The notes beneath the pieces were generated by a model. The model was not told the origin of the DNA and did not search any database. It saw nothing but the letters and a program-made list of their open reading frames with translations. Shown one piece after another: positions 6,704 through 57,753 of a DNA stretch of 64,000 nt. Position 1 is the stretch's first letter. Each line of letters begins with the position of its first letter. Location: NCBI GenBank assembly GCA_021736135.1, contig JAIPGO010000001.1, positions 1 to 64,000 of the forward strand. Reading direction: 5' to 3'. The position numbers and the translations under genes are program-made. The stretch is from Candidatus Cloacimonadota bacterium. GTDB lineage: Bacteria; Cloacimonadota; Cloacimonadia; Cloacimonadales; TCS61.

Positions 6704-9031
6704 ATGAAAAAAGTTGTCATCTTACTTTTTGTACTGATATTTATGAGTTTGCTGAAGGGGATCACTATTGAAGTGAATATTGATGGAACGGGGGATTATA
6801 TCACAATCCAGGCAGGTATCAATGCCAGTTCTGATGGTGATATTGTGCTTGTTTATCCGGGCAGGTATTATGAACATATCAATTATAATGGTAAGACAAT
6901 CACCGTTGGCAGTTTAAATCTGACTACTGGTGAGGAGCATTACATCCGAGAAACAATCATAGATGGAAGCGATAATGGTAGTTGTGTACGATTAGAATCG
7001 GAAGAAGGGGCAATGACTACTTTGCAGGGATTTACATTAACCAATGGAGCTGGTGACCTTATACATCCCGCCTTTCGGATGGGAGGAGGAATACTAATGC
7101 TTGAATCCTCACATTTAAGCGTTATAAATTGCCTGATAACCCACAATCGAGCTTCAGGGGGAGGGGGGATTCTGGCTTCAACAGGCAGCCTGTATCTGGA
7201 AGGGACGACAATTAATTATAATCGAAGTTCATATTTATACAGTGGGGGATTATCTACGATAAATATGCAGGTTGTTTTTAGTGAGGAAACCCGATGCAAT
7301 ATATATAACAATTACGGTCATTATGCTAATGATGTTTGCAATAGTGGGGGTGCAAGGGATTATACTGTTATTGTCGATACCTTTACCGTATTAGAACCGG
7401 ATCAATATTATCTGATGGGATTCAATAATGCTACGTCGTTTGAAATTTTTGACATGGAATATGATATTTTGAATGGATATGTGGATGCAGCTGAGTATGA
7501 CATTTACGTTGATCCTCTTGGAAATAACTCTAATAGTGGGATAAGTCCTGATGTACCTATGCAGTCAATCACGGAAGCCCTGATCAGGATACAGGCAGAT
7601 GAGAATAATCCCCTTACTGTTCATCTGGCTCCCGGATTATACAGCCCTTCGGATAACGGGCAAATATTACCGTTACACATGAAATCCTTCGTTTCACTGG
7701 AAGGAGCTGGAATGTATGATACCATTATTGATGGAGAAGATTATTATAATATACTTTATGATAAGATAAGTCGAAATGGATATGCTATAAGAAATCTGAG
7801 TTTTGAAAATTTTTTTAGTCCACGTGAAGTGGAACCTTATTCTGATCAATACAGTTGTTATTTTTCAAGTGCAAATGAAAATCTTGAATATCTCTTAATT
7901 GATGATGTAAGATTTGCCTTTTGTGGTGATGGCTCTGACCCAGGATTTTACAATTACTACTTAGTTAGGAGTACAAGAGGGTTAGATTTGAGTAATGTGA
8001 TTTTTGAAGATAATGAGTCGAGAATTTGTGGACTTAAGTTATATGGATATCCTAATGGAGGTTCCCACACCATAAACATCACTAATACTATTATGAGAAA
8101 TAATGACAATTTCTTTGGACTGGTTTATTTTGGTAATGAGAATGCAAATAATCAGCTGAATATAATTGATTTGGAATTTACAAGAAATCATTTTGACTAT
8201 CCCAATTCAACTCCGGGAGCAACTTATTGCCAAGGGATGAAATTTTATGGACCTAGTCAGATAAATATAATTAACAGTACTTTTTCAGACAATACTTTGG
8301 CTCAGGATAATGGAACTATTTTAGATTTCCAATTTTCTATGAATATCAATATGTTTAATACAATAATATCAGGTTATCCGTATAATGCAATTGAAAGATG
8401 CTTAGGTGGTGATCCATCTCAGGAATTTATTCTTGATCACTGTCTGATCGAGGGAGGTATTGATGATGTGCTTGGAGCAGGACTTCCCGGAATGGTATAT
8501 GGAGAAGTACTTACGCATCTTCCCTTTTATGATTATGAAGGAGAATATCCCTATTATTTAGCATATAATTCCCCCTGCATTGGTGCCGGAACATTAGAAC
8601 TGCCTGATGAAATTGAATTACCGGATTATGATTTTATGGGTAATCCGCGTATAGTGGGAACAAACATTGATATTGGCGCATACGAATGGAATGGCTGGGG
8701 AACGCCAAACGATTATGATGAAATAATGCAGAAATCGATGGATATAATGGTGTTTCCGAATCCGATAATTCCTGGTAAAATGCGGGATGGGAAAGCGAGG
8801 ATCGAATGGCGGGGAGAAGATGTTACTGGAGAGGTTAGTTTTGAGATTTTTAATGTGAAGGGGCAGCGCTTACGCGAATTGAAAATTGATAATGGAAAAT
8901 TGAAAATTAATACAGCGTATTGGGATATGACAGATAATAAAGGTCACATAGTGAGTTCGGGTGTATATTTTTTGCGGATGAAAGCAGAGGGGGAGTATAA
9001 GGCACAGCGGAAAGTAGTACTTTGTAATTAA
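6704..9031 (+). CDS. Paralogue of the 4251-6563 gene, with a divergent C-terminal sorting domain
   Basis: Near-identical N-terminus and 3'-central segment. C-terminus (VFPNPIIPGKMRDGKARIEW...SSGVYFLRMKAEGE) differs from its neighbour. ATG 6704 preferred over TTG 6680. Confidence 0.88.
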   Translation: MKKVVILLFVLIFMSLLKGITIEVNIDGTGDYITIQAGINASSDGDIVLVYPGRYYEHINYNGKTITVGSLNLTTGEEHYIRETIIDGSDNGSCVRLESEEGAMTTLQGFTLTNGAGDLIHPAFRMGGGILMLESSHLSVINCLITHNRASGGGGILASTGSLYLEGTTINYNRSSYLYSGGLSTINMQVVFSEETRCNIYNNYGHYANDVCNSGGARDYTVIVDTFTVLEPDQYYLMGFNNATSFEIFDMEYDILNGYVDAAEYDIYVDPLGNNSNSGISPDVPMQSITEALIRIQADENNPLTVHLAPGLYSPSDNGQILPLHMKSFVSLEGAGMYDTIIDGEDYYNILYDKISRNGYAIRNLSFENFFSPREVEPYSDQYSCYFSSANENLEYLLIDDVRFAFCGDGSDPGFYNYYLVRSTRGLDLSNVIFEDNESRICGLKLYGYPNGGSHTINITNTIMRNNDNFFGLVYFGNENANNQLNIIDLEFTRNHFDYPNSTPGATYCQGMKFYGPSQINIINSTFSDNTLAQDNGTILDFQFSMNINMFNTIISGYPYNAIERCLGGDPSQEFILDHCLIEGGIDDVLGAGLPGMVYGEVLTHLPFYDYEGEYPYYLAYNSPCIGAGTLELPDEIELPDYDFMGNPRIVGTNIDIGAYEWNGWGTPNDYDEIMQKSMDIMVFPNPIIPGKMRDGKARIEWRGEDVTGEVSFEIFNVKGQRLRELKIDNGKLKINTAYWDMTDNKGHIVSSGVYFLRMKAEGEYKAQRKVVLCN

Positions 9032-9329
9032 AAAATTGAATAAGAAATTTTTAAACCGCGGATTAAGATGATTACACGGATAAAATTCTATATTCTATTA
9101 TTAAATTGAGTTATAATTTTACATTTTACATTTTCAATTTTACATTACTTTTGTCACATCTTCACATCTTCACATTTTCGTCTCACGATTCACTTCTCAC
9201 GTTTCACTCCTGAACGTAGAGAAGGTTCATTTCTCATCCTCACATCTTCGCATCTTCGGTATTCGATATGAAGTGCATTGAGCATGTTAATGCATGCGAT
9301 GACAGCCGCAATAGGGGGGAAAATTAATT

Positions 9330-9349
9330 GGGCGAATGATGATTCGCCC
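9330..9349. repeat. Perfect 8-bp stem hairpin GGGCGAAT-GATG-ATTCGCCC
   Basis: Read directly. A second hairpin, CAGGGATG...CATCCCTG, follows at 9361-9400. Confidence 0.8.
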
Positions 9350-9624
9350 CTACAGTTGACCAGGGATGGTTTGGAAACTTTCGTTCACAGGGCATCCCTG
9401 CCCTGATTTGTATTCTCACTATTCACCGTTCACCATTTTTTATTGACAGAATTATGAGCGTTATTTTATTTTATTTTTTGGTTGAATCGCTTACTTATGA
9501 ATTAGAGTTTATTCTGTTATTTGTATAGTTCAACGCAGGAGGAACTACATAATGAAAGACTTTTATAATGGAAAATGGACAATGGATGATGGATAATTCA
9601 ATCAAGAGGAGCTGCGTAAGTGCT

Positions 9625-9636
9625 TATATATATATA
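9625..9636. repeat. (TA)6 simple sequence repeat in the leader of the fourth beta-helix gene
   Basis: Counted directly; homologous to (TA)10 at 1425-1444. Confidence 0.9.
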
Positions 9637-9701
9637 GCTCATTAACAGTAAATAACTTTGATCGAAAAAAACTGTTTTGCTATGGATACAAATCCAAATT
9701 C

Positions 9702-9798
9702 GGCTGAGGTGACTGCTTCATTAAGTTGAAGCAGGCTGAAAAACGAATGCCCGTTTACCATAAAAGGCGCTTTGCCGACAATTGCCAGCAAAGCAGCC
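9702..9798 (+). ncRNA. Candidate structured 5' leader RNA, copy B
   Basis: GGCTG/CAGCC enclosing CTGCTTCA/TGAAGCAG and CTTTGC/GCAAAG; same 97-nt length as copy A. Confidence 0.5.
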
Positions 9799-34474: not shown

Positions 34475-35572
34475 TTACCCTTTTTCCTCTAACTGTCGTT
34501 TCAGTTCCTTTATTTCATCACGCAGATCCTTGATGCGGAATTCTCTGCCGACAAAAAGACGGTTGAATTCTTCCAGTTTCTGGTTTTTCTCTTCCAGTTC
34601 TTTTGTCCGGGCTTTAACCATATCCTCAAGATGTTGCCGGTAGTTATGTAGTTCCAGTTCAGTATTTTTTCGCTCTGTAATATCAATAATCGTTCCGTTC
34701 AAATGGAGTAATTCTCCATCTTCATTGAAAATGCCCTGTCCCTCTTCAAAAACCCAGACGATTCTGCCATCCCTGTGAATTATCCTGTATTCAAAAGTGT
34801 AATGATTTTTATTTTTTAATCCTTCCTGAACCAGATTTCCTAATGTCTCTTTATCTTCGGGATGGATGATACTGGCATAACTGCGAACCCGGTTACCAAT
34901 GAAATCAGTAACCGGATAGCCGGAAATCTTCTCAATACCTCCGCTGATAAAACTAATCGTCCAATTTTCGTCATTCGCACAGTTATAGACTACACCGGAC
35001 ATATTATGCAATACGGAATAATACAGTTCTTCATTCTTCTTCAGCTTCTGAACGGCTTTTATACGCTCCGTTATATCGATTGACATTCCCATTACAAAGA
35101 GAGGCTGGTTATTTTGATCTCGGATCAATACTAAACGCTGACTCACATATATAACGTTTCCATCTTTTTTGATCAGTCTTTTATCTATTCTTACGCTGGG
35201 AGCACCGGCAACCAGTTCGTTATATTTTTTCTCACTTTTCTCAATATCATCAGGATATCCTACTTCGTAGAATTTTCCCTGCAGCAATTCTTCGCGGGGG
35301 TAACCAAGAATATCGGCATAAGCCTGGTTTACATCCATTAATATTCCCTCGGATGTTGCCATGGCAATTCCAATGGGGGCATTTTCAACCATCAAACGGA
35401 AACGTTCTTCGCTTTTCTTCAGATCAAGCTCTACCTGTTTGCGCTCTAAAATATCTGTTTCCAGTTCCGCAGTACGTAGAAGTACTAAGCTGCGCAATGA
35501 CCTGTTCCAGAATATGATTAACAGTATTATTGCTAAAAGCAATACAGATATACATATAGTGACTAATGTCAT
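34475..35572 (-). CDS. Membrane-anchored protein with two PAS/PAC domains and C-terminal coiled coil; no recognised output domain
   Basis: N-terminal TM segment; ERFRLMVENAPIGIAMATSEGILMDVNQAYADILGYPREELL; FEYRIIHRDGRIVWVFEEGQGIFNEDGELLHLNGTIIDITERK. Confidence 0.88.
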   Translation of the reverse strand: MTLVTICISVLLLAIILLIIFWNRSLRSLVLLRTAELETDILERKQVELDLKKSEERFRLMVENAPIGIAMATSEGILMDVNQAYADILGYPREELLQGKFYEVGYPDDIEKSEKKYNELVAGAPSVRIDKRLIKKDGNVIYVSQRLVLIRDQNNQPLFVMGMSIDITERIKAVQKLKKNEELYYSVLHNMSGVVYNCANDENWTISFISGGIEKISGYPVTDFIGNRVRSYASIIHPEDKETLGNLVQEGLKNKNHYTFEYRIIHRDGRIVWVFEEGQGIFNEDGELLHLNGTIIDITERKNTELELHNYRQHLEDMVKARTKELEEKNQKLEEFNRLFVGREFRIKDLRDEIKELKRQLEEKG

Positions 35573-35731
35573 TCTTTGTTCTCCGCTTCAATATTTAATA
35601 TCTGATATACCGGCAAAGCGGAAATATTGTCTGATCAATAAATGATATTCCCAACCGCCAATCTTTCATATACACCTTAATTTTACAATATTATACCCCA
35701 AATACTTAATGCCTGTAAAGCGATATTGATG

Positions 35732-35893
35732 TCAAGCTAATACTTTTACCGGGCATAACTCCATTTCTGCTTTATATTCCCAGACTTTCTGACCCTTGAT
35801 ATTATAGACAGTAAACGATACTTTCTCTGCAGGTTTTCTTGGTTTAAACCATATCTTCGTTTCCGGATTGGAAGAATTTGAGTAATTATCCAT
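35732..35893 (-). pseudogene. Detached T9SS-type sorting domain remnant (53 aa)
   Basis: Reverse strand translates to MDNYSNSSNPETKIWFKPRKPAEKVSFTVYNIKGQKVWEYKAEMELCPVKVLA*, matching NYPNPFNPETxIxF...YNIKGQKV. Absent from the ORF track. Confidence 0.7.
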
Positions 35894-35910
35894 TTTCACC
35901 TGCCGGATTC

Positions 35911-36094
35911 AAATGTAGATTAATCTTTCCAGATTAATCTTTTTAAATGTCAAACTGGAAAGTTTGACCTGAACTTTAACTACATTCTTCGTAAATGATT
36001 TAAATCCCATTCACATAGCATCTGCCTTGCTCTGATGTAGATTAATCTTTCCAGATTAATCTTTTTAAATGTCAAACTGGAAAGTTTGACCTAC
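35911..36094. repeat. Two ~58-bp direct repeats (122-bp period), each with two hairpins whose loops are mutually complementary
   Basis: gatgtagattaatctttccagattaatctttttaaatgtcaaactggaaagtttgacct occurs at about 35914 and 36036. Confidence 0.9.
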
Positions 36095-36315
36095 ATCCCT
36101 TCGTAAATAAATTTGACCCCATCCGCTTTATCCGCTTGCCACGGAGAATATCTGCGAAGACGTGCGGTTGAAAAGTCTTTGGAGTAAACAGAAAATAAAG
36201 TAAATCCCGTTACCTGTCTTCTTCCTAATTTATTTACTCTGCCTTAAAGAAATGGTTGTGGGGGAATTAGAGATCGGTGATCAGTAATCAGTAATCTGTG
36301 ACCTGCGGTATGAAG

Positions 36316-36474
36316 GAGAATAAGGAGGTGCTAAGGACCTGCTAAGGTTGGTATAAGGAGCCACAACAAGGCACAATCTAACGATATTCTGTTAGATTGT
36401 GCCTTGTTGTGACACCTTAGACCCTCCTTAGTGCCACCATCGTGCCTCCTATTGAGTATAGCTAAAGTCATTGA
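36316..36474. repeat. Large imperfect palindrome with a perfect 21-bp core stem (36362-36382/36391-36411)
   Basis: CACAACAAGGCACAATCTAAC-gatattct-GTTAGATTGTGCCTTGTTGTG; flanking 'ctaagga' words extend the arms imperfectly. Confidence 0.92.
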
Positions 36475-36566
36475 GCCGGTGTAGTACATAACGTTCCTAG
36501 TTTTGTTTTGACAGAAATTGCTGGAAAAATTAGATTACTAATTAATTAAATTGTAAGGAGCATAAG

Positions 36567-36704
36567 ATGGTTGGTGGAAATTTTGCAATGCCGAATGATA
36601 CTTTTCAAATCCGGCTGGATGAAGAGCATATGATTCATAGAACCTCCATTAATATGGCTTTACAACTCGATAGCAGGAAGAAAAATAATGGGGAGAACTT
36701 ATGA
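36567..36704 (+). CDS. Small ORF (45 aa) translationally coupled to the ATPase
   Basis: ATG preceded by taaggag; translates to MVGGNFAMPNDTFQIRLDEEHMIHRTSINMALQLDSRKKNNGENL*. ATGA overlap with the 36701 start. Confidence 0.5.
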   Translation: MVGGNFAMPNDTFQIRLDEEHMIHRTSINMALQLDSRKKNNGENL

Positions 36705-37951
36705 AATTGACAGTAGATAATTTTATCAGTATAAAACGCGCAGAGCTGGAATTGAATAATATCACCCTGATCATCGGAGAACAGGCAGAAGGTAAAAGTC
36801 TGCTGGCGAAACTGGTGTATTACTTTCTGATGCTCATAGAAAATCCTTTTCTTGGAAGGGATAGATTTGATAATATTTCTGAATGTATAAAAGAGTACAA
36901 AAAAGAATTTCAGAATCGCTTCTATTACCAGGATAATGACTTTTTTAATATAAAATTTGAAATAGACTCAAATCTCTGGTATTTTTTAAAATATGATTCA
37001 GGAAATGGTCTGCAGCTTGAGATTTCCAAGGCTATCGGGACATTTATTACCAAGCATATCAGGCTAAATAATAGTGAAAAAGAACTGTTCATAGATAACA
37101 TAAAACGACTTATCAAATATAAAGGAGAAATACAGCAACTATTTGGCTCAATAAATTATAAGAAAGCCCTTTTTATCGATTCTGCACGTTCCTATTATGG
37201 AATTCTGGAGAAAACCTGGCTGCCCTTGATAAAGGAGAATATCAAGTTTGCAGATCCTTTTCTGTTTGAATATGGTGATTTGCTCCAGAAAGCCAAAGCT
37301 GTAGCCGGTAATGAAAAATTCAGGAATTGGGGTTCTGACAACAAAGTATCTATAAATCATTACAATAATATCTTGAAACTTCTTAGTAATAATATACTTA
37401 AAGGTGATTATAGAGCCATTAACGGAGATGAATACATCATTTCCGGCAATGAGAGAAAAACGATGATTGCAAATACGTCTTCCGGTCAAAAAGAAACTTT
37501 ACCTATTGTTTTAATTCTAAAAGCTTTGATATCTAATGACATTTATGATTATATGAGATTCAAAGAAATCATTATTGAAGAACCTGAATCTCATGTATTT
37601 CCATCTACACAAAAAGATCTCGTTGATTTTATTAGTTTTGTTTATAAATTAAATGATGATAATCATTTCCTGATTACGACACACAGTCCATACATCCTTA
37701 CTGCTTTCAATAACCTGATTCTGGCTGGTGAAACATATAATGATGCAGATCAGAAGGTAAAAAATAAAATAGCTAAGATTATGGTTAAAGAATGCCTCTT
37801 GAGAAGTAAGGAAGTAACTGCATATCATTTAGAAAGCGGCGTTCTTAAACCAATCATGGATAAAGAAACAGGGTTGATTTTAGCAGAAGGTTTAGACAAA
37901 GTTTCCGAAGATATTGGAGAGCAATTCAGTCAATTATTGGATCTTGATTAA
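36701..37951 (+). CDS. AAA/OLD-like ATPase (SMC/ABC-type ATPase), putative defence protein
   Basis: Walker A GEQAEGKS, signature-like TSSGQKE, Walker B EIIIEEPESHVFP, H-loop LITTHSPYIL. Confidence 0.85.
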   Translation: MKLTVDNFISIKRAELELNNITLIIGEQAEGKSLLAKLVYYFLMLIENPFLGRDRFDNISECIKEYKKEFQNRFYYQDNDFFNIKFEIDSNLWYFLKYDSGNGLQLEISKAIGTFITKHIRLNNSEKELFIDNIKRLIKYKGEIQQLFGSINYKKALFIDSARSYYGILEKTWLPLIKENIKFADPFLFEYGDLLQKAKAVAGNEKFRNWGSDNKVSINHYNNILKLLSNNILKGDYRAINGDEYIISGNERKTMIANTSSGQKETLPIVLILKALISNDIYDYMRFKEIIIEEPESHVFPSTQKDLVDFISFVYKLNDDNHFLITTHSPYILTAFNNLILAGETYNDADQKVKNKIAKIMVKECLLRSKEVTAYHLESGVLKPIMDKETGLILAEGLDKVSEDIGEQFSQLLDLD

Positions 37952-37952
37952 T

Positions 37953-38381
37953 ATGGATCGTCTGGAAGATTGTGTCGTCAGCAGGGGAAATGGTAAGCTT
38001 ATACCATTAAAAGAGAACCAGGCTAAGATCACTTTCAAAAATCCCAGCAATGATTGGATCATAAAAATCAAGCCTGAAAAGTGTTCTACACTTACCGGTA
38101 AAAGATGTGACAACCTGGTAATTATTGAAAGAAGCGCTGCCGGTATATTTGTGGAACTGAAGGGACGGCATTATGAGCAAGGTCTAAAACAACTACAAAA
38201 TACTGTGAAGCAAGTAAAAACACTGCACATTCTGGATTATATGAAGGCATATCTGGTAACAAGTAGCTGCCCTAAGATCACGACAAAAAATCAAAGAGAC
38301 CAACGAAACTGGCAAAAAGAAATTTGTCCTCTAAGAATTATCAGATCAGGCGTTGAAATAGATTTAACGACAATTATTTAA
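37953..38381 (+). CDS. Small putative PD-(D/E)XK-like nuclease/partner protein
   Basis: ATG 37953 one base after the ATPase stop (tracked start 37914 overlaps). Motif CDNLVIIERSAAGIFVELKGRHYEQGLKQL gives D-x(n)-ExK. Confidence 0.6.
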   Translation: MDRLEDCVVSRGNGKLIPLKENQAKITFKNPSNDWIIKIKPEKCSTLTGKRCDNLVIIERSAAGIFVELKGRHYEQGLKQLQNTVKQVKTLHILDYMKAYLVTSSCPKITTKNQRDQRNWQKEICPLRIIRSGVEIDLTTII

Positions 38382-38398
38382 AACATTCAGGAGATTTA

Positions 38399-39139
38399 TT
38401 GAAAGAAATTGATAGCGCTATTGAAATAATCCTTCAGGCGCGGCATTTGATCGCTTTTTGCGGGGCGGGGATATCTGTGGAAAGCGGGATTCCGCCTTTT
38501 CGGGGTGAAAACGGGCTTTGGAATAAATATGATGCAGATTGTCTGGACCTGGATACTTATTTATATAATCCCCAGTTGGTATGGCTTACTATCAAGGAAA
38601 TATTCTATGACTTTTTTGGGGAAGCACTGCCTAATCCCGCCCATTTTGCACTGGCAAAACTGGAGGAAATGGGTCTTTTAAAAGCGGTTATAACCCAGAA
38701 TATAGATAATCTCCATCAGACAGCCGGCAGCAAAGATGTTATAGAATTTCATGGTAATTCTCACAGCTTTATCTGTCAGAAATGCGGCAAAAAATATGCT
38801 CTAAAAGATCTGCAATTGGATAAAAAACCGCCTTTGTGCGGTTACTGTAAGGGTCTATTAAAGCCGGATTTCGTGTTTTTTGGAGAAGCGATACCGGAAT
38901 TGGCCAGAGACAGAGCCTTTGGTGAAGCTGAAATGGCAGATGTTGTTCTGGTGATTGGTACTACGGGCGAGATCATGCCTGCCTGCCTGATCCCGCGGCT
39001 TGCCTGGCAGCGGGGAGCAAAGATCATTGAAATCAATCCGGGATATTCCGCCTACAGAAATACTATTACCCATATTCATCTTTCAGGAGCAGCCGGAATA
39101 ATATTGCCCCTTCTGGTCAAGGGATTAGCGGTTGACTAA
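38399..39139 (+). CDS. cobB: Sir2-family NAD-dependent protein deacylase
   Basis: FCGAGISVESGIPPFRG, TQNIDNLHQTAGS, EFHGN, CQKCG...CGYCKG, KPDFVFFGEAIP. TTG start after an aggag motif. Confidence 0.92.
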   Translation: MKEIDSAIEIILQARHLIAFCGAGISVESGIPPFRGENGLWNKYDADCLDLDTYLYNPQLVWLTIKEIFYDFFGEALPNPAHFALAKLEEMGLLKAVITQNIDNLHQTAGSKDVIEFHGNSHSFICQKCGKKYALKDLQLDKKPPLCGYCKGLLKPDFVFFGEAIPELARDRAFGEAEMADVVLVIGTTGEIMPACLIPRLAWQRGAKIIEINPGYSAYRNTITHIHLSGAAGIILPLLVKGLAVD

Positions 39140-54164: not shown

Positions 54165-55514
54165 GTGCTAATGGAAAAGACAGAATTCCAGTATATTCTA
54201 CAAGAAGGTGAATCATATTTTGTGGAATTCAAGCGTAATATTTCTAAAGGAATAGCCCGGGAAATGGTAGCTTTTGCTAATGCATCCGGCGGTCGGATTT
54301 TTGTCGGAATTGATGATGATGGAACTGTTCACGGATTAACGATAACTAATAAATTGAAATCTCAGATAAATGATCTGGCTCAAAACTGCTCCCCCTCTGT
54401 CAAAATTTCTCTTTCTGAATTCGAAAATATATTAATCATTCATATTTTGGAAGGACAGGATAAACCTTACCAGTGTTCTGAGGGATTTTTCGTCAGAATG
54501 GGTACAAATTCTCAAAAGATGAACAGGCAACAGATCATTGATTTTCTGCAATCAGAAGGCCAGATAAGGTATGAAGAGCAGATCCACCCCAGGTTTGATT
54601 TTGAAAGAGATTATGCTCCTTCCAAGCTGCAGGGATTTCTAAAACTGGCTGAAATAACCGAAAACGTGGATAATCAGATAGTGTTATTGAATCTGGGAGT
54701 TTCTGAAATTGTTACAGGTCATTTGCAGATGAAAAATGCAGGGGTTCTCTTTTTTTCACATACAATCGAGAGTTTATGTGAGCAGGGCACGATCACCTGT
54801 GCTGTATTCGACGGAAATGAAAGAATTGATATTTTAAACAGGAAAGACTATAATGATGATATTATCACGAATATCAACAGCACCTTACATTTTATCAAAC
54901 AGGCACTGAAAGTAAAATATATCATTACTCAGGAAGCTCAAAGAAAGGAATTATATGAATTACCTCTGGAAGCCGTTAGAGAAGCAATCGTAAATGCTGT
55001 GTCGCACCGCGATTATTTTATATATGGCGCACATACAACGGTAGATATTTTCGATGATAGAATTGAGATAAGCAATCCGGGTGGATTGCCCAGAGGATTA
55101 TTCCCGGAAGACTTTGGTAAAAGAGCAGTGAGAAGAAATCCCATTATAGCCTCTCTTCTCCAAAGAGTTAAGTTAGTGGAAAATATGGGCACTGGCATTA
55201 ACCGGATGAAAAAATTGCTAAAAGAAAACGGTAATCAGGAACCCGCATTTACCTTCAATGGATTTTATACTATCACATTTTTCCGCGATAATCTGGTAAA
55301 TGGCGGTGTAAATGGCGGTGTAAATGGCGGTGTAAATGAGAATATAGTTTATGGGTTCATTCAGCATAATCCTGGTTCCAGAGCAAATCTTATTAGTGAT
55401 AATCTTCAAATACCTCCGCGAACCGTGGAAAGGGCTCTAAAAAATCTGAAAGATAAAGAACTGATAAATTACAAGGGTAGTCCTAAAACTGGCGGTTACT
55501 TTGTTAACCATTAA
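54165..55514 (+). CDS. Schlafen/AlbA_2-type ATP-binding, putative transcriptional regulator
   Basis: YFVEFKRNISKGIAREMVAFANASGGRIFVGIDDDGTVHG; C-terminal LEAVREAIVNAVSHRDY...ENMGTGINRMKKL and winged-helix tail. Confidence 0.88.
   Translation: MLMEKTEFQYILQEGESYFVEFKRNISKGIAREMVAFANASGGRIFVGIDDDGTVHGLTITNKLKSQINDLAQNCSPSVKISLSEFENILIIHILEGQDKPYQCSEGFFVRMGTNSQKMNRQQIIDFLQSEGQIRYEEQIHPRFDFERDYAPSKLQGFLKLAEITENVDNQIVLLNLGVSEIVTGHLQMKNAGVLFFSHTIESLCEQGTITCAVFDGNERIDILNRKDYNDDIITNINSTLHFIKQALKVKYIITQEAQRKELYELPLEAVREAIVNAVSHRDYFIYGAHTTVDIFDDRIEISNPGGLPRGLFPEDFGKRAVRRNPIIASLLQRVKLVENMGTGINRMKKLLKENGNQEPAFTFNGFYTITFFRDNLVNGGVNGGVNGGVNENIVYGFIQHNPGSRANLISDNLQIPPRTVERALKNLKDKELINYKGSPKTGGYFVNH
55296..55340 (+). 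repeat. In-frame 12-bp tandem repeat (gtaaatggcggt x3 plus partial)
   Basis: Encodes VNGGVNGGVNGGVNE, the linker before the winged-helix region. Confidence 0.95.
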
Positions 55515-55736: not shown

Positions 55737-57044
55737 ATGATCCAGGAATTTAGTGTTGGTAATTATTTATCCATCAAGGACACTCAAACGCTGAGTTTTA
55801 TTCCGCGGAAAAGTGATCTTAATCATGATTTATTTACAGTAGAGATTTCATCTGGAGTAAGGTTGCTAAAATCTGCGGTTATTTATGGGTCAAATGCATC
55901 AGGTAAAACAAATATATTAAAAGCTTTAGAATTTTTGCGACTTATAGTTTTGCGGACAAGAAAAAGAGGAGAAAATACTGGTTTTGTGCCCTTCCTATTT
56001 AACCAGGCCACAAAAAAATCACCCGGTGAATTTGAAATAATATTTTTTAAAGGCAATAATAAATTCAGGTATTATCTAAAAATCAGTGAGTCCGAAGTAA
56101 TTGAAGAGGAATTGAATTACTATCCAGGTCAGACTCCAGCCACGATTTTTTACCGCAAGACGGTTAGTGAACAAGATATTATTATTGAATACAGTTCAAC
56201 TTATGGAGTAAATAAAGCAGAAAGAGAAATGATAAGAGCGCGGGTATTACCTAACGTCAGCGTTTTAAGTTCACTGGGAGATGTTTCAACTAAAAATGAA
56301 ATTCTGTTGAAAGCATACAACTGGTTTTTAGAAGATCTAAAACCAATAATAACTCCTGACACAAAATTAAGGGATTACACTGCTTTCAAAATTCTTAAAC
56401 AAGATAAAATGGAAAAGCTGCTGACATATTTGATGATAAAAGCAGATTTTAATATAGAACACATCAGGGCAGAAAAAGAACTCATAAAGATCGAAAGTGA
56501 TGATATTACGAAGCTGAAGGAAAAATTTCCTGAATTTATTGTTAAGGAAATAGAAGAGAAAGGAGGGGTAACGCGAAGAAACTTGAGCTTCTTTCATAAA
56601 ATAAATGATAAAGGAGAAACAAGTATTTATCAGTTAGATGAGGAATTGGAATCACGAGGTACATGGCGATATTTCGGTTTAGCTGGACCTATACTGGAAT
56701 CATTAAAGGGTCATAAAACTCTGTTTATTGACGAACTGGATTCTTCACTTCACCCTGATTTATTGAATTTTATATATTCCATGTTTTTAGTAAACTCCAA
56801 AGGTGCCCAGATTATTTTTACCATTCATAATCGGGAATTATTGGAGGATAAAGAATTACAGCGTCGTGACTTAATCTGGTTTACGGAAAAACAAAGAGAC
56901 GGATCTACGGAATTATATTCAATAGCAGATATCAGCGGAATTCGCAAGGATCAATCTTTTGAGAAATTGTATAAGACCGGCAAATTTGGAGCCATACCTA
57001 ATTTGGGAAATCTATATCTGGAAATTGATTATGATGAAGACTAA
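55737..57044 (+). CDS. RloA/AbiLi-like AAA ATPase
   Basis: VIYGSNASGKTNILKALEFL; TLFIDELDSSLHPDLLNFI; IIFTIHNRELL. Immediately upstream of an RloB-like gene. Confidence 0.85.
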   Translation: MIQEFSVGNYLSIKDTQTLSFIPRKSDLNHDLFTVEISSGVRLLKSAVIYGSNASGKTNILKALEFLRLIVLRTRKRGENTGFVPFLFNQATKKSPGEFEIIFFKGNNKFRYYLKISESEVIEEELNYYPGQTPATIFYRKTVSEQDIIIEYSSTYGVNKAEREMIRARVLPNVSVLSSLGDVSTKNEILLKAYNWFLEDLKPIITPDTKLRDYTAFKILKQDKMEKLLTYLMIKADFNIEHIRAEKELIKIESDDITKLKEKFPEFIVKEIEEKGGVTRRNLSFFHKINDKGETSIYQLDEELESRGTWRYFGLAGPILESLKGHKTLFIDELDSSLHPDLLNFIYSMFLVNSKGAQIIFTIHNRELLEDKELQRRDLIWFTEKQRDGSTELYSIADISGIRKDQSFEKLYKTGKFGAIPNLGNLYLEIDYDED

Positions 57045-57753
57045 ACTAAATAGAAATATAATAGGGAAAAGAATATATACTACTATAGCAATACTCGGAG
57101 AAGGACTAACTGAGTATTGGTATTTTCAAAGAATGAAGGAACATGAGAAAGATCAATTTGCAAGAAAAACCGTGGCCTTCTTTCCAGATAAACCACCTCC
57201 ATCAGGACGTAAATGTGAAGAAATATTACAGGAAGCAATGGAATTAATTATTGATCGGGATTTTGTGTTCTGCATTCTTGATTATGATGTTATCTGTGCC
57301 CAAAAGAAGAATAGGGCAAATTTTGAAAAGAAATTATCTGAATTACGACAAAATTGTTTCAACTATAGTTCAGAAAAAGAAGATAAAATTTCCGTATATA
57401 TATTCCCCGATAACATAGCTTCTTTGAAAGATGTTAAAGCAAAGGCTATTATTATATTAAAAAATATGCCTTGTCTGGAATTCTGGTATTATCTACATTT
57501 TGAAAATAAGAGCGCTTATCAAGATAGATGTAATAAAATAGAAGAGTTGCTGGCAAGGGCTAAATATCTCTCCGGATATTCTAAAACCCAGAAATATTAT
57601 AAGGACAAGGATGTTTATTCATTACTTAGAGATAAGTTACCTGAAGCGATAAGTAATGCCGATTCAATAAATAAACTGCGTCTCTCTGAGCCGGATCGAA
57701 AATATTCTTACAGTGATATGTATATCTTATTTCAATTTCTGGGGATTGGATAA
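57031..57753 (+). CDS. rloB: RloB-like (AbiLii-like, Toprim-related) protein
   Basis: TIAILGEGLTEYWYFQRMKEHE...FVFCILDYDV...PCLEFWYYLHF. ATG 57031 (tracked 56959) gives a 14-nt overlap with the ATPase. Confidence 0.82.
   Translation: MMKTKLNRNIIGKRIYTTIAILGEGLTEYWYFQRMKEHEKDQFARKTVAFFPDKPPPSGRKCEEILQEAMELIIDRDFVFCILDYDVICAQKKNRANFEKKLSELRQNCFNYSSEKEDKISVYIFPDNIASLKDVKAKAIIILKNMPCLEFWYYLHFENKSAYQDRCNKIEELLARAKYLSGYSKTQKYYKDKDVYSLLRDKLPEAISNADSINKLRLSEPDRKYSYSDMYILFQFLGIG

What the first reader, a model, noticed from the sequence alone, without database searches (positions are those of the whole stretch)
36567..38381. Compact sORF-ATPase-nuclease-like cassette: candidate undescribed defence system
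Seen in sequence: an untracked 45-aa ORF with a Shine-Dalgarno motif overlaps (ATGA) an OLD/AAA-type ATPase. A ~142-aa protein starts one base after the ATPase stop and carries CDNLVIIE...FVELKG, a D-x(n)-ExK pattern. Established knowledge: AAA/OLD ATPases paired with a small nuclease recur in anti-phage systems (Septu, Gabija, OLD). Inference: this is a nuclease-effector pair with a small coupled partner. I do not recognise this exact three-gene arrangement as a named system, but I could not search.
Basis: partly seen in the sequence, partly recalled or inferred. Interest (0 to 1): 0.85.

Follow-up and report, generated by a model that had tools for sequence, protein, structure and literature searches.

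The report
Known-type ATPase–nuclease phage-defence pair (WonAB-like)
Two tightly coupled genes encode an ATP-driven sensor and a small nucleic-acid-cutting enzyme that very probably stop phage infection; the same pair is already listed as a candidate defence system (PDC-M29) and closely resembles a tested Vibrio system (WonAB), so it is a good new example of a known kind rather than an undescribed system.

Summary
The ORFs are exactly as described. The 142-aa protein models confidently (pLDDT 94) and its best structural matches are PD-(D/E)XK nucleases; D53, E68 and K70 are invariant in 36 relatives. The ATPase is a Rad50/PtuA-type ABC ATPase without Toprim. Both proteins hit the two partners of one PADLOC candidate, PDC-M29. 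All 37 genomic loci found with the nuclease alone, from several phyla, have the ATPase immediately upstream; in reverse, 19 of 22 evaluable ATPase relatives on viral contigs have the nuclease next door. An E. coli relative lies in a P2-like prophage between replication endonuclease and portal genes. The design matches WonAB of Vibrio cholerae (ABC ATPase + ~16 kDa PD-(D/E)xK nuclease, catalytic Lys71 versus Lys70 here), shown to abort infection by stopping translation; WonAB's own sequence could not be compared. The 45-aa ORF has no homologue anywhere searched. The cassette is AT-rich and absent at the same place in three relatives. New member of a known kind; low-to-moderate interest.

The parts
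36701..37951 (+). ABC-type ATPase, 416 aa (PDC-M29A / WonA-like): Walker A GEQAEGKS 36776-36799 (K32), R163, signature SSGQ (260-263), Walker B IIEEPE (E293/E294), H-loop THS (H328), short C-terminal extension with invariant D399
   Evidence: PADLOC PDC-M29A 6.7e-23 is the best hit; Pfam AAA_15 1.8e-14; 34/34 sequences scanned match PDC-M29A; motifs invariant in 34 sequences; model pLDDT 84, closest to Rad50 and PtuA
37953..38381 (+). Small PD-(D/E)XK nuclease, 142 aa, 16.3 kDa (PDC-M29B / WonB-like): D53 codon 38109-38111, E68 38154-38156, K70 38160-38162, Q80
   Evidence: PADLOC PDC-M29B 3.4e-8, its only PADLOC hit; model pLDDT 94.3; Foldseek best EndoMS/NucS, then BspD6I, Can2, Mus81; C52, D53, F66, E68, K70 invariant in 36 sequences
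37949..37955 (+). Translational coupling junction: ATPase stop TAA, one base, nuclease ATG
   Evidence: a start codon lies -8 to +6 nt from the ATPase stop in 34 of 38 loci
36567..36704 (+). 45-aa ORF with Shine-Dalgarno motif, overlapping the ATPase start by ATGA; at most a lineage-specific leader peptide or regulator, not part of the conserved module
   Evidence: no homologues; codon composition gene-like

Best explanation
A two-gene anti-phage (abortive-infection) cassette of the PDC-M29 / WonAB type. Shown here by computation: an ABC-type ATPase with an intact nucleotide-binding set, and a translationally coupled small PD-(D/E)XK nuclease with an intact catalytic set, that travel together across phyla and occur in prophages. 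Inferred by analogy with WonAB: the ATPase dimer binds the nuclease through its C-terminal extension and senses a consequence of phage infection. The ATP-dependent ATPase is then needed for nuclease activity, which cuts a host RNA (tRNA or rRNA), stops translation and arrests the infected cell before phage structural proteins are made. The trigger and the exact substrate are unknown, also for WonAB.
For: Both proteins hit the two partners of one PADLOC candidate, PDC-M29A and PDC-M29B. 37/37 loci found with the nuclease alone have the homologous ATPase directly upstream. 19 of 22 evaluable ATPase relatives on IMG/VR contigs have the nuclease next door. ATPase and nuclease distance matrices correlate, r=0.92, 0 of 5000 permutations as high. 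Fold of the nuclease confident and PD-(D/E)XK-like; ATPase Rad50/PtuA-like. An E. coli relative (433-aa ATPase, 145-aa / 16.1 kDa nuclease with catalytic K71) lies in a P2-like prophage between replication endonuclease and portal. WonAB: ABC ATPase plus PD-(D/E)xK nuclease WonB (16.1 kDa, K71 essential), both needed, abortive, stops translation (PMC12137116). Mobile: GC 32-33% against 40-45% in most flanking sequence; cassette absent upstream of sir2 in three relatives; ATPase tree mixes phyla.
Against: No defence island: genes beside 28 genomic relatives are mostly housekeeping, with few PADLOC hits. Nothing was tested against phage. The nuclease substrate (DNA or RNA) cannot be read from the fold; the nearest structural matches (EndoMS, BspD6I) cut DNA. 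PDC-M29 itself is an unvalidated PADLOC candidate as far as I could find.
Confidence: 0.77

Rival explanations
1. A DNA-targeting defence pair: the nuclease, activated by the ATPase, degrades or nicks phage (or host) DNA, as reported for Septu PtuAB, rather than RNA.
For: Closest structural matches of the nuclease are DNA enzymes: EndoMS, BspD6I, Mus81. ATPase is Rad50/PtuA-like. Septu PtuAB from E. [quoted passage not shown]
Against: WonAB, the nearest tested architecture, left DNA intact and stopped translation (PMC12137116).
Confidence: 0.25
2. A DNA-repair or housekeeping nuclease-ATPase pair (Rad50/EndoMS-like) rather than a defence system.
For: ATPase resembles Rad50 and the nuclease resembles the mismatch endonuclease EndoMS/NucS; neighbours are often housekeeping genes.
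Against: Patchy (4 of about 125 genomes of the phylum), cross-phylum tree, in prophages, absent at the syntenic place in relatives, PADLOC candidate in both partners.
Confidence: 0.08
3. A three-component system in this lineage, in which the 45-aa product is an antitoxin-like or trigger-sensing regulator.
For: Good Shine-Dalgarno motif, ATGA overlap, gene-like codon score.
Against: No homologue in any relative locus, in 123 genomes of the phylum or in plasmids; the nearest relative locus (L017) has no similar ORF; the ATPase has its own SD-like motif.
Confidence: 0.1

Closest known systems
PDC-M29 (PADLOC-DB 2.0 phage defence candidate, partners A and B)
   Same: ATPase hits PDC-M29A best (6.7e-23) and nuclease hits only PDC-M29B (3.4e-8); 34/34 ATPase sequences match A, and of 36 nuclease sequences 27 match one PDC-M29B model (PDLC04563) and 4 the other (PDLC04564)
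   Different: Only a name in a model library; I found no paper on PDC-M29. The window carries an additional upstream sORF.
WonAB (V. cholerae WASA-1 prophage) and the wider 'OLD-ABC ATPase + Novel REase' operon of Krishnan et al. 2020, as cited in the WonAB paper
   Same: OLD-like ABC ATPase without Toprim, followed by a ~16 kDa PD-(D/E)xK nuclease; essential residues K34/R182/E300/H333 and K71 in WonAB against K32/R163/E293-294/H328 and K70 here; prophage carriage of relatives (PMC12137116)
PD-T4-4
   Same: ABC ATPase + nuclease; ATPase hits PD-T4-4_A second (5.5e-18)
   Different: Nuclease gives no PD-T4-4_B hit.
Septu / retron Ec78 PtuAB
   Same: ATPase profile matches PtuA (1.2e-13) and its fold; two-gene logic
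   Different: PtuB is an HNH nuclease; here the nuclease is PD-(D/E)XK.
PARIS (AriAB), OLD, Gabija, AbiL
   Same: AAA_15/AAA_21 ABC ATPase as sensor
   Different: Those rely on Toprim nuclease domains; none is present here.

Membership tests
PDC-M29 (PADLOC) | ATPase matches PDC-M29A | tested here: met
   6.7e-23, best of all PADLOC models
PDC-M29 (PADLOC) | Adjacent small protein matches PDC-M29B | tested here: met
   3.4e-8, only hit; adjacency
WonAB | ABC ATPase with Walker A Lys, conserved Arg, Walker B Glu, H-loop His, no Toprim | tested here: met
   K32, R163, E293/E294, H328 invariant in 34 sequences; about 90 residues after the H-loop; no Toprim hit
WonAB | Downstream ~16 kDa PD-(D/E)xK nuclease with catalytic Lys near position 71 | tested here: met
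   16.3 kDa, K70, fold supported
WonAB | Sequence homology to V. cholerae WonA and WonB themselves | not tested
WonAB | Abortive infection through translation arrest, both genes and both active sites required | not testable with these tools
   Needs experiment; shown for WonAB (PMC12137116)
PD-T4-4 | Partner nuclease matches PD-T4-4_B | tested here: not met
   No PD-T4-4_B hit in the window protein or 35 relatives
OLD / PARIS / Gabija (Toprim-based) | Toprim nuclease domain in the ATPase or partner | tested here: not met
   No Toprim match in Pfam; partner is PD-(D/E)XK-like
Septu | HNH nuclease PtuB | tested here: not met
   Partner is PD-(D/E)XK-like, no HNH hit

The most novel reading that the evidence does not exclude
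In this lineage the 45-aa ORF is a genuine third component (leader, antitoxin or trigger sensor) of a WonAB-like system, giving a three-gene variant in which a small coupled peptide controls an ATPase-licensed nuclease.
Probability: 0.08. Interest if true: 0.45.

Novelty: new member of a known kind. Interest (0 to 1): 0.25.

Why it matters
It shows that a candidate defence pair known mainly from a profile library (PDC-M29) has the same architecture as the tested WonAB, reaches Cloacimonadota, Bacteroidota, Cyanobacteriota and other phyla, and has a clearly predictable PD-(D/E)XK catalytic set. Since neither the trigger nor the RNA target of WonAB is known, the family-wide invariant residues and the diverse relatives, including an E. 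coli prophage copy, give ready-made material to find them.

Tried and rejected
Novel three-gene system: rejected, sORF has no homologues. OLD/Gabija/PARIS membership: rejected, no Toprim. Septu membership: rejected, nuclease is not HNH. PD-T4-4: rejected on the nuclease partner. Defence-island evidence: looked for in 138 flanking proteins of 28 genomic relatives and not found; no matched control was run. Pfam, NCBIfam and PDB sequence searches of the nuclease gave nothing useful; weak NucS_C and HSDR_N hits in some relatives agree with the fold search. Nuclease-anchored scans of viral contigs found nothing; the ATPase-anchored scan worked. Rfam found nothing in 35500-38500.

Full report
Observation. 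The ATPase has GEQAEGKS, SSGQ, IIEEPE and THS; the small protein has CDNLVIIE...FVELKG.

Known families. Pfam gives AAA_15 for the ATPase and nothing significant for the small protein; NCBIfam gives nothing near its cut-offs. PADLOC gives PDC-M29A for the ATPase (6.7e-23, best) and PDC-M29B for the small protein (3.4e-8, its only hit). The pair is therefore already represented in a defence library. 'PDC' systems are unvalidated candidates from a guilt-by-embedding survey (PMC12988326, PMC10855318). No paper held in the library mentions PDC-M29.

Relatives and co-occurrence. A scan of one genome per species with an alignment of the small protein alone gave 37 loci in Cloacimonadota, Bacteroidota, Cyanobacteriota, Thermodesulfobacteriota, Bacillota, Planctomycetota and Electryoneota (phylum names). 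All 37 have a homologous ATPase directly upstream, and so does a phage-labelled gut scaffold. A start codon for the nuclease lies -8 to +6 nt from the ATPase stop in 34 of these 38 loci. Reverse test: the ATPase alignment found 37 IMG/VR loci. Of 23 that score strongly as this ATPase family, 19 have the same nuclease family immediately downstream, one is cut near the contig end, and three (L077, L080, L081) have a different ~200-aa partner, two of them with an ExK-like motif. Over 34 loci the distances of the two proteins correlate at r=0.92 (0 of 5000 permutations as high).

Fold. In 36 nuclease sequences C52, D53, F66, E68, K70 are invariant, and L55, L69, G71, Q80 nearly so. The AlphaFold model has mean pLDDT 94.3. 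PDB matches are modest in E-value (best 5.6e-3, probability 1.00), but the leading ones are nearly all PD-(D/E)XK nucleases: EndoMS/NucS, BspD6I, Can2, Mus81-Eme1, Card1 (fold class of these enzymes from own knowledge). The ATPase model (pLDDT 84) resembles Rad50 and PtuA, and its profile finds PtuA, OLD and AriA in PDB. No Toprim domain is present.

Function by closest tested system. WonAB of the V. cholerae WASA-1 prophage is an OLD-like ABC ATPase plus PD-(D/E)xK nuclease. WonA K34/R182/E300/H333 and WonB K71 are required; infection is aborted without lysis; WonB is toxic only with active WonA; DNA stays intact and translation stops, so the target may be tRNA or rRNA (PMC12137116). The window pair has the corresponding residues K32/R163/E293-294/H328 and K70, and a 16.3 kDa nuclease. 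A related E. coli pair (L061: 433-aa ATPase, 145-aa, 16.1-kDa nuclease with K71) is present in 10 of 5426 complete E. coli genomes. In strain A27 it sits in a P2-like prophage between replication endonuclease and portal genes, the position that in P2 holds tin and old (own knowledge). The WonAB sequences themselves could not be compared, so 'WonAB-type' is an architectural and motif match; 'PDC-M29' is a tested profile match.

Mobility. The cassette is 32-33% G+C against 40-45% in most flanking sequence. In three relatives of the same family the sir2-EamA-(40025)-(40407)-TatD block is conserved, but a peptidase-like gene (L109, L110) or a 650-aa ORF (L108), not the cassette, precedes sir2. Only 4 of about 125 genomes of the phylum have a detectable nuclease in each of two searches. 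The ATPase tree places the window in a supported clade that mixes Cyanobacteriota, Bacteroidota, Electryoneota and Cloacimonadota. In Dyadobacter (L048) the pair lies between pyrH-like and frr-like genes (naming from sequence and size, own knowledge). Defence islands are not evident around relatives.

The sORF. It has a good Shine-Dalgarno motif and gene-like codon usage, but no homologue in the own genome, 123 genomes of the phylum, plasmids or any relative locus. I treat it as lineage-specific or spurious, not as a component of the conserved system.

Verdict. Observation confirmed; interpretation right on biochemistry and probable role, wrong on novelty and on a third component. New member of a known kind.

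Noticed in passing
36323-36450: Large palindrome (60-nt arms, 77% complementary, 8-nt loop) just upstream of the cassette; similar sequence at several dozen other places in the own genome (79 strand-matches), so a dispersed MITE/REP-like palindromic repeat.
   Followed up: partly
35897-36092: Two 74-nt direct repeats, 91% identical, in the intergenic region upstream.
   Followed up: no
55737-57753: A second ABC-ATPase/partner pair in the same window: ATPase matching AbiLi at 5.3e-81 followed by an overlapping 264-aa frame with a GEGLTEYWYF stretch reminiscent of RloB/Toprim-like partners; probable AbiL/RloAB-like defence pair.
   Followed up: partly
54165-55514: Schlafen AlbA_2 + HATPase_c_4 protein next to the AbiL-like pair.
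   Followed up: partly
L077, L080, L081 (viral contigs): ATPases of the same family followed by a different ~200-aa protein, two with IELKY/IETKY motifs and no PADLOC hit: possible exchange of the nuclease partner.
   Followed up: partly
L018, L022, L024, L028, L041, L043, immediately upstream of the ATPase: A conserved ~160-aa gene (MSTVIYVNQACIESLDITPAKIAIEKLL...) ends about 7-11 nt before the ATPase start in six cyanobacterial loci (Pseudanabaena and one uncultured); not seen elsewhere.
   Followed up: no
L114 (E. coli A27), 8043-9790: E. coli relative of the pair in a P2-like prophage between replication endonuclease and portal; the pair is in 10 of 5426 complete E. coli genomes, annotated only as AAA family ATPase and hypothetical protein.
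   Followed up: yes
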